A stretch of 64,000 nucleotides of DNA from Nostoc sp. TH1S01. GTDB lineage: Bacteria; Cyanobacteriota; Cyanobacteriia; Cyanobacteriales; Nostocaceae. The notes beneath the pieces are model-generated. The model worked only from the letters and a program-made list of their open reading frames with translations. It ran no database searches and had not been told where the DNA came from. The DNA lies in assembly GCA_018993265.1 (NCBI GenBank), contig JAGKSW010000095.1:1-64000 (forward strand), given 5' to 3'. Below are positions 3,903-35,783 of this stretch, in pieces (within the stretch, counting starts at the first letter, position 1; the number at the start of each line of letters is the position of its first letter). A program made the translations under genes and the position numbers.

Positions 3903-4216
3903 GTGAAATTTTCTGTGAAATCCATTTACCCCATCTCTACTTCCTTGCGTGCGACCAACTGCCGATCTAGTTGGGAATCAGCCGCTGCGGGAGTGGAGTA
4001 TTTATTTATGGGCGATGGTAGCCATATTCATGGGCTAATCACAGAGGGGAATTATGATTTTAGATATCTCGGCATAGGCGTGCTGAATGCAAAACCACAA
4101 CTGCAACAAATAAGCGGGAGGTACAGACAAGAGAATGCTGTACCGATATAACACCAGAGAAGTTTTTGGTAAATTTCTAACCCCCGCTTCACTTAGACCA
4201 GAAGCGGGGGTTTTTT
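3903..4216 (+). ncRNA. Candidate structured RNA or leader upstream of the HNH gene
   Basis: This stretch has no convincing protein frame; an 82-codon frame at 3903-4151 has un-protein-like composition. It carries a hairpin (GGTACAG at 4120-4126 with CTGTACC at 4138-4144) and ends in a near-ideal intrinsic terminator at 4179-4216, only 17 bases before the next start codon. Either a small RNA ends here or this is an attenuated leader of the HNH operon. I could not match it to 6S RNA, tmRNA, RNase P RNA or Yfr1. The 5' boundary is a guess. Confidence 0.3.
4179..4216 (+). terminator. Strong intrinsic terminator or attenuator
   Basis: Stem AACCCCCGCTTC (4179-4190) with GAAGCGGGGGTT (4201-4212), a 10-base loop and a T run to 4216. 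It lies directly in front of the HNH gene's ribosome binding site, so readthrough control is possible. Confidence 0.85.
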
Positions 4217-6647: not shown

Positions 6648-6652
6648 TTCAT

Positions 6653-6725
6653 TGCCGGGTGGACGAATTGGAAAGTCGCATCGCTCTGAACGATGAGGTT
6701 GCAGGTTCAAACCCTGCCCTGGCAA
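6653..6725 (+). tRNA. tRNA-Gln(CTG)
   Basis: Acceptor TGCCGGG pairs with CCTGGCA, with one G-T pair. The 5-bp anticodon stem is CATCG/CGATG, the anticodon CTG is at 6686-6688, the T arm is GCAGG-TTCAAAC-CCTGC, and the discriminator is A. CCA is not encoded. Confidence 0.85.
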
Positions 6726-6728
6726 TAA

Positions 6729-6804
6729 AGCCCTGTGGTGTAATTGGCAACATCCCGCCCTTTGAAGGCGAAGATTCCAGGTTCGACCCCTGGCAGGGCT
6801 GCCA
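6729..6804 (+). tRNA. tRNA-Gln(TTG)
   Basis: Perfect acceptor AGCCCTG/CAGGGCT, anticodon TTG at 6762-6764, T arm CCAGG-TTCGACC-CCTGG, discriminator G, CCA encoded. The outer anticodon-stem pair is mismatched. Confidence 0.85.
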
Positions 6805-6810
6805 AATTTT

Positions 6811-6887
6811 GCTCTTGTAGCCCAATTGGAAGAGGCTGCCGTCTCAAAAACGGTATGTTGTGGGTTCAAATCCCACCAAGAGTACCA
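6811..6887 (+). tRNA. tRNA with Leu anticodon CAA, class I body
   Basis: Acceptor GCTCTTG/CAAGAGT, anticodon CAA at 6845-6847, T arm GTGGG-TTCAAAT-CCCAC, discriminator A, CCA encoded. The variable loop is only five bases (ATGTT), whereas bacterial tRNA-Leu normally has a long variable arm. Confidence 0.8.
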
Positions 6888-6893
6888 AAACTA

Positions 6894-6972
6894 GCTCCTG
6901 TAGCCCAACTGGAAGAGGCGGCAGACTTAAAATCTGTTAGTTGTGTGGGTTCAACTCCCACCAGGAGTACCA
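6894..6972 (+). tRNA. tRNA with Leu anticodon TAA, class I body
   Basis: Acceptor GCTCCTG/CAGGAGT, anticodon TAA at 6928-6930, T arm GTGGG-TTCAACT-CCCAC, discriminator A, CCA encoded. The variable loop is about seven bases with no arm. Close sister of the preceding gene. Confidence 0.8.
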
Positions 6973-6973
6973 A

Positions 6974-7047
6974 CGGGATGTGGCGCAACTTGGTAGCGCG
7001 GCAGCTTTGGGAGCTGAAGGTTGCAGGTTCAAATCCTGCCATCCCGA
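6974..7047 (+). tRNA. tRNA-Pro(TGG)
   Basis: Perfect acceptor CGGGATG/CATCCCG, D stem GCGC/GCGC, anticodon TGG at 7008-7010, T arm GCAGG-TTCAAAT-CCTGC, discriminator A. CCA is not encoded. Confidence 0.9.
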
Positions 7048-7050
7048 TAT

Positions 7051-7149
7051 GCCCCTGTGACGGAACGGCATACGTGCTGGAATCAGAGTCCAGATTTTGC
7101 AGCTACCCTTCGGGAAGCCGCTTCGCGTCTACGACTCCTGTCAGGGGTA
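7051..7149 (+). tRNA. tRNA with Leu anticodon CAG, T arm interrupted by a repeat
   Basis: Acceptor GCCCCTG/CAGGGGT, anticodon stem CTGGA/TCCAG, anticodon CAG at 7084-7086. After GCAG the T arm is broken by a 30-base insert (7103-7132), then resumes as GACTCCTGT. Comparison with the next tRNA shows what is missing. Probably a pseudogene unless the insert folds into a tolerated T-arm extension. Confidence 0.75.
7103..7132. repeat. Small dispersed palindromic repeat inside a tRNA gene
   Basis: The 30-base element opens CTACCCTTCGGGAAGCCGC and closes GCGTCTAC. It contains two mini-hairpins (CCC-TTC-GGG and GAAG-CCG-CTTC). A second copy lies at 15398-15431 and a related piece at 40207-40243. It matches the style of the very small mobile repeats known from Nostoc genomes. 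Confidence 0.8.
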
Positions 7150-7153
7150 CTAA

Positions 7154-7230
<77 letters not shown>

Positions 7231-7242
7231 AAATCAAAGTAT

Positions 7243-7316
7243 GCCCTTGTAGCCCAACCGGAAGAGGCGCTTCGCTTAGAACGAGGAGGTTACTGGTTCA
7301 AATCCAGTCAGGGGCA
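7243..7316 (+). tRNA. tRNA with Leu anticodon TAG, class I body
   Basis: Acceptor GCCCTTG/CAGGGGC with one T-G pair, anticodon TAG at 7277-7279, variable loop AGGTT, T arm ACTGG-TTCAAAT-CCAGT, discriminator A. CCA is not encoded. Confidence 0.8.
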
Positions 7317-7325
7317 TTGGTGAAA

Positions 7326-7402
7326 TGCGGGGATGGAGCAAGAGTGGCTTAGAGGTCTCATAAGCCTCATATCAGCAGGTGCAACTCCTGCCCCCGTCAC
7401 CA
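7326..7402 (+). tRNA. tRNA-Met(CAT), initiator-like
   Basis: TGCGGGG...CCCCGTC leaves the first acceptor pair (T-C) unpaired, as in bacterial initiators, and TGGAGC follows as in fMet tRNA. Anticodon CAT at 7359-7361, discriminator A, CCA encoded. There is an extra base after the acceptor strand and the T loop reads TGCAACT, so function is uncertain. The three G-C pairs typical of initiator anticodon stems are only partly kept. Confidence 0.65.
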
Positions 7403-7471
7403 AATAAGGCAAAAGTAAAAAGTTAAAAGGCAAAAGAAAGAAAAGGAAAATTTTTTTACTTTTTAACAAGT
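7403..7471. repeat. A-rich tandem heptamer spacer within the array
   Basis: Repeats of the AAAAGTA/AAAGGCA type. The same kind of sequence fills 7786-7871 and recurs at 61400-61480. Confidence 0.6.
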
Positions 7472-7544
7472 GCTGGTGTAGCTCAACTGGCAGAGCAACT
7501 GATTTGTAATCAGTAGGTTGCAGGTTCAATTCCTGTCACCAGCT
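7472..7544 (+). tRNA. tRNA-Thr(TGT)
   Basis: Perfect acceptor GCTGGTG/CACCAGC, D stem GCTC/GAGC, anticodon TGT at 7505-7507, T arm GCAGG-TTCAATT-CCTGT, discriminator T. CCA is not encoded. Confidence 0.92.
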
Positions 7545-7553
7545 TGACTAATT

Positions 7554-7625
7554 GCGGGTGTGATGTAATCGGTAGCATCTGAGTGCGCCACATTCAGCGT
7601 GCGAGTTCAAATCTCGCCACTCGCT
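7554..7625 (+). tRNA. tRNA-Gly(GCC)-like with C33
   Basis: Acceptor GCGGGTG/CACTCGC, T arm GCGAG-TTCAAAT-CTCGC, discriminator T, anticodon GCC at 7587-7589. The anticodon loop is GCGCCAC, so C replaces T33. Variable loop of four bases. CCA is not encoded. Confidence 0.65.
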
Positions 7626-7630
7626 TACGT

Positions 7631-7705
7631 AGTCCTGTAGTTCAACGGTAGAGCAATTGCCTTACAAGCAATAAGTTGCGGGTTCGATTCCTGCCAGGAC
7701 TACCA
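7631..7705 (+). tRNA. tRNA-Val(TAC)
   Basis: Perfect acceptor AGTCCTG/CAGGACT, anticodon stem ATTGC/GCAAT, anticodon TAC at 7663-7665, T arm GCGGG-TTCGATT-CCTGC, discriminator A, CCA encoded. Confidence 0.92.
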
Positions 7706-7711
7706 ATTATT

Positions 7712-7785
7712 GGGAGTGTAGCTCAATCGAAGAGAGCATCGAGCTTCTAACTCGAAGGTTGTAGGTTTGAGTCCTACCACTCTCG
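7712..7785 (+). tRNA. tRNA-Arg(TCT)
   Basis: Acceptor GGGAGTG/CACTCTC, anticodon stem TCGAG/CTCGA, anticodon TCT at 7746-7748, T arm GTAGG-TTTGAGT-CCTAC, discriminator G. The T loop has TTTGA in place of TTCGA. Confidence 0.85.
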
Positions 7786-7871
7786 CCTGAACAAGTCAAA
7801 AGTTGAAAATCAAAAGGCAAAACAAAAAATTCAATTTTTACTTTTTACTTTACACTTTTTACTTTCTTCAT

Positions 7872-7945
7872 GGGGTCATAGCTCAAATGGCTAGAGCGCC
7901 TGCCTTGCAAGCAGGAGGTTATGGGTTCAATTCCCATTGATTCCA
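7872..7945 (+). tRNA. tRNA-Ala(TGC)
   Basis: Acceptor GGGGTCA/TGATTCC with two G-T pairs, D stem GCTC/GAGC, anticodon TGC at 7906-7908 on a perfect CCTGC/GCAGG stem, T arm ATGGG-TTCAATT-CCCAT, discriminator A. The G3-T70 pair needed by alanyl-tRNA synthetase is present. Confidence 0.9.
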
Positions 7946-7950
7946 CTGAT

Positions 7951-8025
7951 GGTGTCTGAAGCCAAAGCGGTCGAGGCGCTGGTTTGTGGAACCAGTCATA
8001 GCGAGTTCAAGTCTCGTCGGACACC
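7951..8025 (+). tRNA. tRNA-His(GTG)
   Basis: Extra 5' G at 7951 opposite discriminator C at 8025, the hallmark of tRNA-His. Acceptor GTGTCTG/CGGACAC, anticodon GTG at 7986-7988, T arm GCGAG-TTCAAGT-CTCGT. Confidence 0.92.
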
Positions 8026-8032
8026 CCTGAAT

Positions 8033-8115
8033 GGAAGATGCCGCTAAATGGTTGGCAACCGGTCTTGAAAACCGGGGTGGGGTAACACCCAGGGGTTCGA
8101 TTCCTCCATCTTCCG
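8033..8115 (+). tRNA. tRNA-Ser(TGA), class II
   Basis: Perfect acceptor GGAAGAT/ATCTTCC, anticodon TGA at 8066-8068, long variable arm (GGTG-CACC), T arm AGGGG-TTCGATT-CCTCC with one mismatch, discriminator G. The only class II tRNA in the array. Confidence 0.88.
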
Positions 8116-8119
8116 CCTT

Positions 8120-8191
8120 CCACCTGAAGCCGAAAAGTGAGGCGCTGTGCTGATAACACAGTTATAGGAGGGGCAGTACCTCCCTGGTGGA
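8120..8191 (+). tRNA. tRNA-Ile(GAT)-like with divergent T loop
   Basis: Acceptor CCACCTG/CTGGTGG with one T-T mismatch, anticodon stem CTGTG/CACAG, anticodon GAT at 8152-8154. The T stem GGAGG/CCTCC is intact but its loop is GGCAGTA, lacking the TTC core. May be a pseudogene. Confidence 0.6.
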
Positions 8192-8270
8192 TTGTGATTT
8201 GGGGAATAGGGAGTACGTCTCCTTTTCCCCCTGTACCTTGTCTTCCTTGTCTCCCTTATCTTTTCTTTAT

Positions 8271-8342
8271 GGGTGGTTGGCATAGCGGCTGTGCAACGGG
8301 CTTTTAATCCGTCATAGAGAGGTTCGACTCCTCTACCACCCA
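8271..8342 (+). tRNA. tRNA-Lys(TTT)
   Basis: Perfect acceptor GGGTGGT/ACCACCC, anticodon TTT at 8303-8305, T arm AGAGG-TTCGACT-CCTCT, discriminator A. Last gene of the array, ending 15 bases before the stop of the convergent TPR gene. A pyrimidine-rich spacer (8192-8270) precedes it. Confidence 0.92.
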
Positions 8343-8356
8343 TTTTCAATCAGCCT

Positions 8357-33593: not shown

Positions 33594-33838
33594 TATTTTG
33601 ATTCCTTGTAGATTTAGACATGAGGAAGTTTTGCAGAATTGGTCAAAAGTCTGAAGCAACAAGAATATTGATTTTGGGAGGGTGTCAGGGTTTTGAAAAT
33701 ATCTACCCTTTCACCAGCCAAACCCTTAATTTTCTTCACCAAATTCCTGACTTCCATAATTTGCCCATATTTCAACTAAACCCGCAAGGAGTCCCACACC
33801 GTAATCTCTGATTCGGTGTCGGGAGGAATTGCATTTAT

Positions 33839-34981
33839 CTATATCGCTACGCATAATCTTGAACTCCGTTGAATTAACTTGACACTGTGAGGATTAAACT
33901 GCCCAGTACGCAACCAATTGTGGTCATAAACTGAGATATTTTTTGTTTTACCAGAATTAGTAAAACCACCAACCCACCCACGTATTACTTCACCCTTTTT
34001 TTGAATTTGAACATAGTCTCCTGACCGAAAGCAAAATGGTGTTATAGTTCCACCTTGTCTTTTTAAAACGCCACCCTTTAAATAATTTTCTTGATGCAAT
34101 TTACGTCTAAATAATTTAGGACGAGTTACGACAATGAATGGTGCTTTGGTTACTTTACATTCTCCTATCCAATGATGTCCGTGACTCGATGCGGTATGAA
34201 ACTTTTTGTACTCAATAAATGCTGTTGATGCTAATGCTATTGCATCATTCGCATGAGTCTCTGCACTTTGTTCTGACTTATCTTTTTTGTTTTTTACAAG
34301 TCCTAAATGGTCACGATATTTGCCTGTATCGAGAGAATCTATCTCTACAACTACCGCTATTTTTGATGCTTGCAATCTAAACCATTCCTGACCAACTGTT
34401 ACCGGAGATATACCAAATCCATTTTTCTTATAATTACCGCCACAAGACTCGTCTCTAATCTCAGTTAAGGGAAGTATTTTTGACATCTCAGTTAAGATGC
34501 GTAATTCCATTTCTCTATTGGCTCTCACACTAGGAGGTAACTTATTTTGACGACGATTAGAAAATCTTTTCTGGCGATGATTCCTTAGATTGAATGGCAC
34601 TTTGCGGTTAATACGCTGTCCTCTGCGAATATGTCTTAACTCAGCCCGTTTTGCCATCTTTCCTGTTACCGACTGCCTGTCCTTGCTTATTTTCTTTGAT
34701 TTATAAAATCCAGGCAAACAAGCATGAAATAACGCAATTGTTGCTAGTTTGGTTTGAAACGCAATTCCTGTAAATGCCTTGCCTCTATCTGTGCCAACTA
34801 CTATTTCTTGTGTTTCATATCCTGATGGTTCACACAATAATTGGACGTAAAATACGCCAACTTTATTGCGCTTTCCTACCGCTTTACCCGCTTTTATCCA
34901 CTTCTTTACCCGCGCTGGTGTAGTCGGCATAAGCGGGTTGCCATTTAGCGACAATACTGGTACTCGTGTTACTTGATTCAT
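33839..34981 (-). CDS. isrB: IsrB-type protein: IscB relative with RuvC but no HNH domain
   Basis: 380 residues from the ATG at 34981 (MNQVTRVPVL); twenty more codons upstream lack support. It opens with the PLMP domain (NPLMPTTPARVKKWIKAG, residues 15-32). RuvC-I carries Asp65 in VGTDRGKAFTGIA, and an Arg-rich bridge helix spans about 111-147. RuvC-II is VVVEIDSLDTG with Glu213; RuvC-III is ETHANDAIALAS with His243 and Asp246. Only about 30 residues separate RuvC-II and RuvC-III, so the HNH domain of IscB is absent. The C-terminal domain (GDYVQIQKKGEVIRGWVGGF) matches the IscB target-interacting part. It should be an RNA-guided nickase. No TnpA is nearby. Confidence 0.88.
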   Translation of the reverse strand: MNQVTRVPVLSLNGNPLMPTTPARVKKWIKAGKAVGKRNKVGVFYVQLLCEPSGYETQEIVVGTDRGKAFTGIAFQTKLATIALFHACLPGFYKSKKISKDRQSVTGKMAKRAELRHIRRGQRINRKVPFNLRNHRQKRFSNRRQNKLPPSVRANREMELRILTEMSKILPLTEIRDESCGGNYKKNGFGISPVTVGQEWFRLQASKIAVVVEIDSLDTGKYRDHLGLVKNKKDKSEQSAETHANDAIALASTAFIEYKKFHTASSHGHHWIGECKVTKAPFIVVTRPKLFRRKLHQENYLKGGVLKRQGGTITPFCFRSGDYVQIQKKGEVIRGWVGGFTNSGKTKNISVYDHNWLRTGQFNPHSVKLIQRSSRLCVAI

Positions 34982-35040
34982 AGGGATAACCCAAACTATT
35001 GCTAATTTGTATTTAGAGTAAAACTCCGTCCCTTCGGGCA

Positions 35041-35171
35041 ATTTGGTAAGCGTATCTTCTATTCACGACTAGACCATAAAGAGGAGCCAGTTGCGGTGGA
35101 CGGGTTCCCCGGCATAAGCAAACTGGCGTGTACAAACTAGGGAAATATTTGTACGTTTAGCCTTACCAAAT
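35041..35171 (-). ncRNA. Candidate guide RNA (omega RNA) upstream of isrB
   Basis: A 131-base element in the position where IscB/IsrB loci encode their RNA. It is closed by a perfect 10-bp pairing (ATTTGGTAAG at 35041-35050 with CTTACCAAAT at 35162-35171). Inside are GTACAAA/TTTGTAC (35130-35136 with 35148-35154), CCAGTTGC with GCAAACTGG (35087-35094 with 35118-35126, one bulge) and a small CGGG/CCCG loop. Read on the minus strand, the guide would lie just 5' of the closing stem, around 35172-35190. The fold is seen; the role is inferred from family knowledge. Confidence 0.55.
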
Positions 35172-35219
35172 CTCGATGCCCTAACCAACTCTTGCGTTGC
35201 ATACCGTGATCCTAATTTC

Positions 35220-35783
35220 TTAGGGATTTTGCAAGCCTACACGCTCACCTGTACTCAGGTCAGTGTAGGTAGTTGACTGTCTATTTAACTTTTGTGATTT
35301 TTCTGGGGTTGATTGTTTAGCAGCAGTGAATCTCAGAGTTTGAGGAATCCCATTGACTGTTAATTGACCTGTGATTTTATCTTGATCTATCAGCTGCATT
35401 TGCATAGCGATCGCTTGACTTGAGTTAATCTGAGAGTTGGAATCAAGACAAAGAATTTTTGGATCAATTTTGCCAGAGAAACTGATCTGTTGATTTTTCA
35501 ATATACCTGTCAGGGAAGGCTGTTGTTCAGTCTTTGCATTGGAATTATCTGGTACTAAAGAGGCATTCAAGTAAATACCTGATTGTTGCATATTTAATAC
35601 CAAAGAATTTGCTGTTTCACAACTGGGTAATTTCGTCGCCAGAGTCAGAAGGTAGCGGCCATCAACTACAGGAGGCGCTTTGAGATTGTTTTCTCCATAG
35701 GCGGTGACAGTTTTAAACAACAGTAACACTGAACCTATGGCTACTCCATAGAAGGTTAAAGATTTAACATTCAAATGATTCAT
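35220..35783 (-). CDS. Exported hypothetical protein
   Basis: 187 residues from the ATG at 35783; the longer frame begins 22 codons upstream. A signal peptide (FYGVAIGSVLLLFKTVTAYG) is followed by a beta-rich region (VDGRYLLTLATKLPSCETANSLVLNMQQSGIYLNASLV) and ends GERVGLQNP. No named family recognised. It lies 75 bases downstream of the antiporter on the same strand, so it may be co-transcribed and act at the same membrane. The IsrB element is inserted directly behind its stop. Confidence 0.65.
   Translation of the reverse strand: MNHLNVKSLTFYGVAIGSVLLLFKTVTAYGENNLKAPPVVDGRYLLTLATKLPSCETANSLVLNMQQSGIYLNASLVPDNSNAKTEQQPSLTGILKNQQISFSGKIDPKILCLDSNSQINSSQAIAMQMQLIDQDKITGQLTVNGIPQTLRFTAAKQSTPEKSQKLNRQSTTYTDLSTGERVGLQNP

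What the first reader, a model, noticed from the sequence alone, without database searches (positions are those of the whole stretch)
33839..35171. IsrB-type HNH-less IscB relative with its own upstream RNA element
The 380-residue protein has the PLMP domain, Arg-rich bridge helix, RuvC-I Asp65, RuvC-II Glu213, RuvC-III His243/Asp246 and the IscB-like C-terminal domain. Only about 30 residues separate RuvC-II from RuvC-III, so the HNH nuclease is missing. By family knowledge that is IsrB, a rare RNA-guided nickase lineage at the root of Cas9. Both the protein and the upstream region look intact.
Basis: partly seen in the sequence, partly recalled or inferred. Interest (0 to 1): 0.85.

Follow-up and report, generated by a model that had tools for sequence, protein, structure and literature searches.

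The report
Cyanobacterial IsrB nickase mobile element
This is an intact small jumping element of a cyanobacterium that carries IsrB, an RNA-guided DNA-nicking type of protein related to the ancestors of Cas9, together with the gene for its guide RNA; it is a well-delimited new example of a known kind, not a new kind.

Summary
Window 34981-33839 (-) encodes a 380-aa IsrB: best solved match DtIsrB (8dmb, E 3e-44), no HNH, RuvC residues D65/E178/H243/D246 in 68 of 68 aligned relatives. Corrections: RuvC-II is E178, not E213; the RNA is larger than 35041-35200 (scaffold 35277-34982, guide 35297-35278); IsrB is common here, not rare (matches in 93 of 217 genomes of the family). The RNA is real: 19 relatives support 75 pairs including both IsrB pseudoknots (96.3% of cells paired; 140 double changes against 38 in shuffles). 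The unit is a 1502-bp element, 33776-35277; the congeners' uninterrupted site shows it landed just before a host gene's stop codon, directly 5' of TTGA, DtIsrB's TAM. Most likely a non-autonomous IS200/IS605-type element whose IsrB-omegaRNA nicks the uninterrupted allele; movement, transcription and nicking are inferred. Cyanobacterial IsrBs were assayed before (PMC9581776): new member of a known kind. Side result: palindromic mini-repeats are over-represented inside these omegaRNAs.

The parts
33776..35277 (-). Whole mobile element, 1502 bp, left end GTCAACTACC..., right end ...GGGTTTAG
   Evidence: Uninterrupted site in congeners: left flank matched in 10 of 10, right flank by BLAST in 9 of 10; left end conserved in relatives with unrelated flanks
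33839..34981 (-). isrB, 380 aa: PLMP, RuvC with bridge helix, TAM-interacting domain, no HNH; D65, E178, H243, D246
34982..35277 (-). omegaRNA scaffold, 296 nt, ending at the start codon
   Evidence: Alignment A1 of 19 sequences, RNAalifold 32 of 58 pairs with compensatory changes; 75-pair structure with two pseudoknots, 96.3% of cells paired; single-sequence fold z -2.26
35278..35297 (-). Predicted 20-nt guide, in the 3' end of the interrupted host gene (TCACAAAAGTTAAATAGACA)
   Evidence: Position directly 5' of the scaffold and 20-nt length taken from DtIsrB (PMC9581776); 1 mismatch to the uninterrupted allele in 4 of 10 congeners, 3-5 in the other six
33772..33775 (-). TTGA at the right flank = predicted TAM of the uninterrupted target; its TGA is the host gene's stop codon at the uninterrupted site
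   Evidence: TTGA follows the right end in 18 of 18 group A and 14 of 15 group B copies with a recognisable right end; control windows 1-2 of 33; at the congeners' site TTGA in 6 of 10, TTAA in 4
35236..35269 (-). Left-end hairpin (also first stem-loop of the omegaRNA)
   Evidence: Helix 2, 6 of 9 pairs with changes on both sides; the first 45 nt of the left end are 91% identical to an end of a TnpB element on contig C7 of the same genome
33796..33820 (-). Right-end hairpin GACACCGAATC...GATTACGGTGT
   Evidence: Read directly; conserved in many relatives
35084..35129 (-). 46-nt palindromic interspersed repeat nested in the omegaRNA; its core is in 5 of 19 aligned omegaRNAs
   Evidence: 15 copies of its 22-nt core (2 mismatches allowed) in the genome
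35220..35849 (-). Host gene (no Pfam match up to E 0.01) whose stop codon was displaced: C-terminus now ...KLNRQSTTYTDLSTGERVGLQNP instead of ...KLNSH as in congener L078; its last 58 nt (stop included) lie in the element

Best explanation
A complete, recently inserted IS200/IS605-type element without its own transposase, carrying isrB and an IsrB-type (Hirano group B) omegaRNA. Shown by sequence: exact ends, the uninterrupted target in congeners, TTGA at the TAM position, structured RNA with both pseudoknots, intact RuvC active-site residues, no HNH. Inferred: a TnpA made elsewhere in the genome moves it; a transcript entering from the host gene yields an omegaRNA whose 5' guide is the end of the host gene's coding sequence; IsrB binds it and nicks the non-target strand of the uninterrupted allele (guide match followed by TTGA), favouring retention or copying of the element; the occupied allele is spared because the element separates guide match from TAM.
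For: DtIsrB match over 3-374, E 3.1e-44; Foldseek top hit 8dmb; catalytic residues 68/68, TAM-reading R358 68/68 and Q361 67/68; omegaRNA covariation incl. the adaptor pseudoknot (helix 5: 100% paired, 3 of 6 pairs with double changes) and the nexus pseudoknot in the more distant group C (3 of 5 pairs with double changes, 100% paired); uninterrupted site in congeners; TTGA flank statistics; cyanobacterial CwIsrB and DsIsrB nick DNA in vitro with NTG TAMs, DtIsrB prefers TTGA (PMC9581776, passages and two parts of the text read). A 415-bp element with the same ends and an omegaRNA but no isrB in G194 fits mobility in trans.
Against: No TnpA on the window's contig (10 Y1_Tnp matches elsewhere in the genome), and the element has no room for one, so the mover is unidentified. 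The guide differs by at least one base from every congener's allele, so a perfect natural target was not seen; four of ten congeners have TTAA, not TTGA, at the site. The 46-nt repeat in the RNA could weaken it. No excess of promoter-like sites over shuffles. No second uninterrupted site was found. No transcript or activity data.
Confidence: 0.9

Rival explanations
1. The locus is an IsrB element that is sequence-intact but functionally dead: the 46-nt repeat inserted between SL4 and SL5 breaks the omegaRNA, and the element now only persists as a passenger.
For: The repeat is absent at this place from 17 of 19 aligned omegaRNAs; the window copy also lacks the ~76-nt palindrome between stop codon and right end that many relatives carry; single copy in this genome.
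Against: The window sequence keeps the conserved helices and both pseudoknots in the alignment; the repeat folds as its own hairpin; L007 carries the repeat at the same place beside a gene without internal stops; the window ORF is open and keeps every catalytic residue.
Confidence: 0.2
2. An IscB (double-strand cutter) that lost its HNH domain recently, rather than a member of the old IsrB lineage.
For: Shared RRXRR/PLMP and RuvC parts; the NCBIfam IscB model matches the N-terminal half (73 bits).
Against: Far closer to DtIsrB (154.9 bits, end to end) than to any IscB chain (at most 32.8 bits); the adaptor pseudoknot, which Hirano et al. describe as degenerated in IscB RNAs, is conserved; 68 of 68 relatives have only 61-77 residues between RuvC-II and RuvC-III. 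No tree with IscBs was built.
Confidence: 0.04
3. A domesticated IsrB used by the host (regulation or defence) instead of a mobile element.
For: No TnpA beside it; single copy.
Against: Absent at this site from 10 of 10 congeners, with clean ends and an uninterrupted site; nearest relatives (82-85% identity) are in other genera; broken copies exist in relatives, as for ordinary mobile genes.
Confidence: 0.04

Closest known systems
DtIsrB of Desulfovirgula thermocuniculi (PDB 8dmb, PMC9581776)
   Same: Domain order, catalytic residues, HNH linker instead of HNH, R323/Q326 equivalents, two pseudoknots (SL2-SL5 and SL4-linker), TTGA TAM
   Different: 31% identity; insertions before the bridge helix and after RuvC-III (380 against about 350 aa); extra 46-nt repeat in the RNA
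DsIsrB (Dolichospermum) and CwIsrB (Crocosphaera) of the same paper
   Same: Cyanobacterial IsrBs with group B omegaRNA and NTG TAM, shown to nick in vitro (read in the paper)
   Different: Their sequences were not at hand; the Dolichospermum DET69 copy fetched here (L047) is 46% identical to the window protein and has ATGA at the right flank; whether it is DsIsrB is not known
IscB
   Same: PLMP/RRXRR, RuvC; omegaRNA upstream of the gene (recalled)
   Different: HNH domain absent here; below the NCBIfam IscB cut-off
TnpB element of the same genome (L133, contig C7)
   Same: Nearly the same terminal hairpin (91% over 45 nt); its frame also reads through the element end
   Different: TnpB-type nuclease (Pfam Cas12f1-like TNB and OrfB_IS605), hairpin at the other side of the gene

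Membership tests
IsrB | End-to-end homology to IsrB, about 350 aa | tested here: met
   8dmb E 3.1e-44 over 3-374 of 380; Foldseek rank 1
IsrB | RuvC I-III catalytic residues | tested here: met
   D65, E178, H243, D246 in 68 of 68
IsrB | No HNH between RuvC-II and RuvC-III | tested here: met
   64 residues between E178 and H243; no HNH in Pfam up to E 10
IsrB | PLMP domain and Arg-rich bridge helix | tested here: met
   PLMP at 16-19; R112, R116, R119, R120, R123 conserved in 66-68 of 68; RRXRR Pfam 4.5e-34
IsrB | omegaRNA of about 300 nt with adaptor and nexus pseudoknots | tested here: met
   group A: adaptor covaries, nexus invariant; nexus covaries in group C; sequence evidence, no transcript seen
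IsrB | 5' guide at the element's left end and NTG(A) TAM at the right flank | tested here: met
   by position and flank statistics, not by assay
IsrB | RNA-guided nicking of the non-target strand | not testable with these tools
   Needs purified protein and RNA
IsrB | IS200/IS605 superfamily membership (Y1 TnpA) | tested here: inconclusive
   Hairpin ends and clean insertion fit, but no TnpA in the element; 10 Y1_Tnp matches elsewhere
IscB | HNH domain inserted in RuvC | tested here: not met
IscB | NCBIfam NF040563 cut-off (175 bits) | tested here: not met
   73.2 bits

The most novel reading that the evidence does not exclude
The element is a homing nickase: its guide is the end of a host coding sequence and its TAM contains that gene's stop codon, so IsrB would single out the uninterrupted alleles on the other chromosome copies of a polyploid cyanobacterium (polyploidy recalled, not tested), and a nick, not a break, would drive the insertion to fixation while the host protein gains a 20-residue tail; meanwhile the omegaRNA serves as a preferred landing pad for palindromic mini-repeats that become extra RNA stem-loops.
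Probability: 0.2. Interest if true: 0.6.

Novelty: new member of a known kind. Interest (0 to 1): 0.33.

Why it matters
IsrB is a very small Cas9-like RNA-guided protein, and what it does for its element is, as far as I know, open. Here ends, target, TAM, guide and uninterrupted allele are all defined in a family of cyanobacteria with dozens of relatives, so the nick-and-retain idea can be tested in its natural setting. The alignments also give a covariation model of cyanobacterial IsrB RNAs; no Rfam family reaches its threshold at this locus.

Tried and rejected
Rfam on the window and, at loose threshold, on 33640-35400: nothing at the locus above gathering score, four sub-threshold matches to unrelated families. 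The search for related loci in genome contigs with the single protein: 59 stretches matched a peptide pattern, none encoded a relative; replaced by the genome search. A second uninterrupted site was sought with the right flanks of L011 and L006 in 53 genomes each and not found: only parts of the right flank, never the left flank, matched (11 loci each). So the uninterrupted site rests on the window's own locus. Promoter/terminator scan: no excess over shuffles. A regex count of the nexus pseudoknot over all loci was discarded because its landmarks were too loose: of 67 rows 18 showed 4 pairs, 10 showed 3, 38 showed 2 and 1 showed 1; it was replaced by alignment A4, from which L047, L056 (intron) and L064, L066, L067, L068 (extra inserts) were left out beforehand (24 of 30 group C loci; 23 distinct rows counted). 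By eye L067 fits only 3 of 4 inner nexus pairs. The group A RNA alignment used 19 of 22 copies (L004, L013, L036 lack a recognisable left end). Group B alignment A2 (16 of 18 copies) was made but not scored. Proteins: 68 of 70 loci (split L018 and partial L036 left out). In one search four group A and three group B copies had no right-end landmark (L038 in fact ends in TTGA by eye), L042 missed; for group C 25 of 30 fitted the ATGA patterns, two more (L046, L058) by eye. The group C patterns were written after seeing the ends.

Full report
THE PROTEIN. The minus-strand frame at 33839-35041 is best read from ATG 34981 (380 aa). Pfam gives only RRXRR (E 4.5e-34); the NCBIfam IscB model reaches 73.2 bits against a cut-off of 175. 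Against all PDB sequences the best hit is DtIsrB (8dmb, E 3.1e-44, 154.9 bits, residues 3-374); IscB chains reach at most 32.8 bits and only over the N-terminal part. An AlphaFold2 model from 24 sequences (mean pLDDT 71.5, pTM 0.52, poor in bridge helix and linkers) has 8dmb as first Foldseek hit (E 7.2e-26, TM 0.46 by query length, 31% identity), followed by IscBs and RuvC resolvases. In an alignment of 68 cyanobacterial proteins plus DtIsrB the RuvC residues are D65, E178, H243 and D246, each in 68 of 68; the II-III spacing is 64 residues here, 66 in DtIsrB and 61-77 in the 68 (genes of 364-418 aa). R358 and Q361 line up with DtIsrB R323 and Q326, which read G3 and A4 of the TAM (PMC9581776, passages read).

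THE RNA. Nineteen sequences (the window and 18 relatives, 71-100% protein identity) share a block from GTCAACTACC to the start codon (alignment A1). RNAalifold finds 58 pairs, 32 with compensatory changes. With the S2 stem, an SL2-SL5 pseudoknot and an SL4-linker pseudoknot added by hand, 96.3% of 1424 cells pair, 38 pairs and 140 cells have changes on both sides (shuffles 19.7 and 38.0; 0 of 500 reach either), and sliding by one to three columns drops pairing to 32-47%. The structure was drawn from these sequences, which favours it in the sliding control. The adaptor pseudoknot covaries in group A. The nexus pseudoknot is invariant there but covaries in group C (23 distinct sequences, 3 of 5 pairs with double changes). 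One pair in S2 (columns 102-285) is unpaired in 17 of 19. The topology is Hirano's group B (that part of the paper read).

THE ELEMENT. The upstream gene is found in all 10 other genomes of the genus that were searched. Its left flank aligns in 10 of 10, and the right flank follows directly by BLAST in 9 of 10 (the tenth, L083, is diverged but recognisable), with no element between. Example...TCACAAAAGTTAAATAGCCA|TTGAAATATGGG (L078) against ...TCACAAAAGTTAAATAGACA|GTCAAC...TTTAG|TTGAAATATGGG. The element is therefore 33776-35277, 1502 bp. The right flank begins TTGA; six congeners have TTGA, four TTAA. In relatives at unrelated places the right end is followed by TTGA in 18 of 18 (group A) and 14 of 15 (group B) copies with a landmark, against 1-2 of 33 in control windows; group C ends in ATGA (25 of 30 by pattern). 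The insertion displaced the host gene's stop: KLNSH* (L078) became KLNRQSTTYTDLSTGERVGLQNP*.

DISTRIBUTION. One copy in the own genome. In 217 genomes of the family 93 match at E 0.001 or better; by my count of that listing 64 have a best match of 1e-70 or better. Groups: A (72-85% identity), B (50-54%), C (42-50%), and a more distant set near 35% that I did not study. G119 is evidently Nostoc sp. ATCC 53789 (same 325,114-bp record and coordinates) and G056 Dolichospermum sp. DET69 (same 200,795-bp record). Group A also holds damaged copies: L012 and L016 with internal stops, L018 in two frames and L036 partial. G194 holds a 415-bp element with the same ends and an RNA but no isrB.

MOBILITY. 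No TnpA lies on the window's contig; the genome has ten Y1_Tnp matches elsewhere. The first 45 nt of the left end are 91% identical to an end of a TnpB element on contig C7 (TnpB by Pfam), which suggests a shared transposase in trans; this is inference.

NESTED REPEATS. The window RNA carries a 46-nt palindromic repeat (35084-35129) whose 22-nt core occurs 15 times in the genome. In the 19 group A RNAs the core occurs 5 times, in 5 genomes, at three different places (window and L007; L002 and L010; L009), in 4,933 nt, against 0 in 21,642 nt of ORFs and 0 in 41,191 nt of flanks, which are partly coding. With 251 copies in 133.75 Mb over the 16 genomes, 0.008 would be expected, or 0.04 if only a fifth of the genome (an assumed figure) is open to them; if the shared places are counted as single events, three events have P of about 9e-8 or 1e-5. 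The test was made after seeing the pattern. REP doublets tied to IS200-related transposases are known, also in Nostoc punctiforme (PMC3116915, passages read); whether this repeat belongs there was not tested.

MECHANISM AND NOVELTY. A preprint reports that TnpB acts as a drive for IS elements in multicopy plasmids (PMC11870625, abstract and outline read); for IsrB I know of no such test. Searches for papers holding IsrB with Nostoc, or IsrB, IscB and cyanobacteria, gave none in this open-licence library, but cyanobacterial IsrBs were assayed in PMC9581776. So: new member of a known kind, unusually well delimited.

Noticed in passing
window 35084-35129; L002, L007, L009, L010, L020, L025, L037, L039, L041: Palindromic interspersed mini-repeats sit inside IsrB omegaRNAs at several different places, above expectation in group A (5 cores in 4,933 nt; 0 in 62.8 kb of ORFs and flanks); in L002 one repeat appears nested inside another (by eye).
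   Followed up: partly
L032:1729-1806 and 3912-3989, L056:918-995, L013:48-125: Group II introns (Rfam RF00029) next to IsrB genes: in L013 inside the omegaRNA, in L032 (Dolichospermum DET69 plasmid, two in tandem) and L056 ending just before the isrB start. Splicing might restore the RNA, as proposed for IStrons; the sequence upstream of the introns was not examined.
   Followed up: partly
L131 (G194:C50), oriented 1084-1498: A 415-bp element with IsrB-type ends and an omegaRNA but no isrB gene: a standalone omegaRNA in a genome with three full-length group A IsrB copies.
   Followed up: partly
L133 (own genome C7:16000-18800): A TnpB element with nearly the same terminal hairpin, whose frame also runs on past the element end.
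   Followed up: partly
relatives at about 34-37% identity (e.g. G181:C154:140964-141899): A distant family of ~350-aa frames matching only about residues 7-350 of the query; possibly another HNH-less clade.
   Followed up: no
downstream of isrB in many group A and B copies: A ~76-nt palindrome (arms ending in CTGTCCTCC.../...GGACGCAAC-like sequence) between stop codon and right end, missing in the window copy.
   Followed up: no
G160:C53:35082-35396 (same genus): A short, 70% identical IsrB remnant with a stop codon: an older, decayed insertion in a congener.
   Followed up: no
window 6652-8343: Cluster of 14 tRNA genes, a tRNA array as reported from some cyanobacteria (recalled).
   Followed up: no
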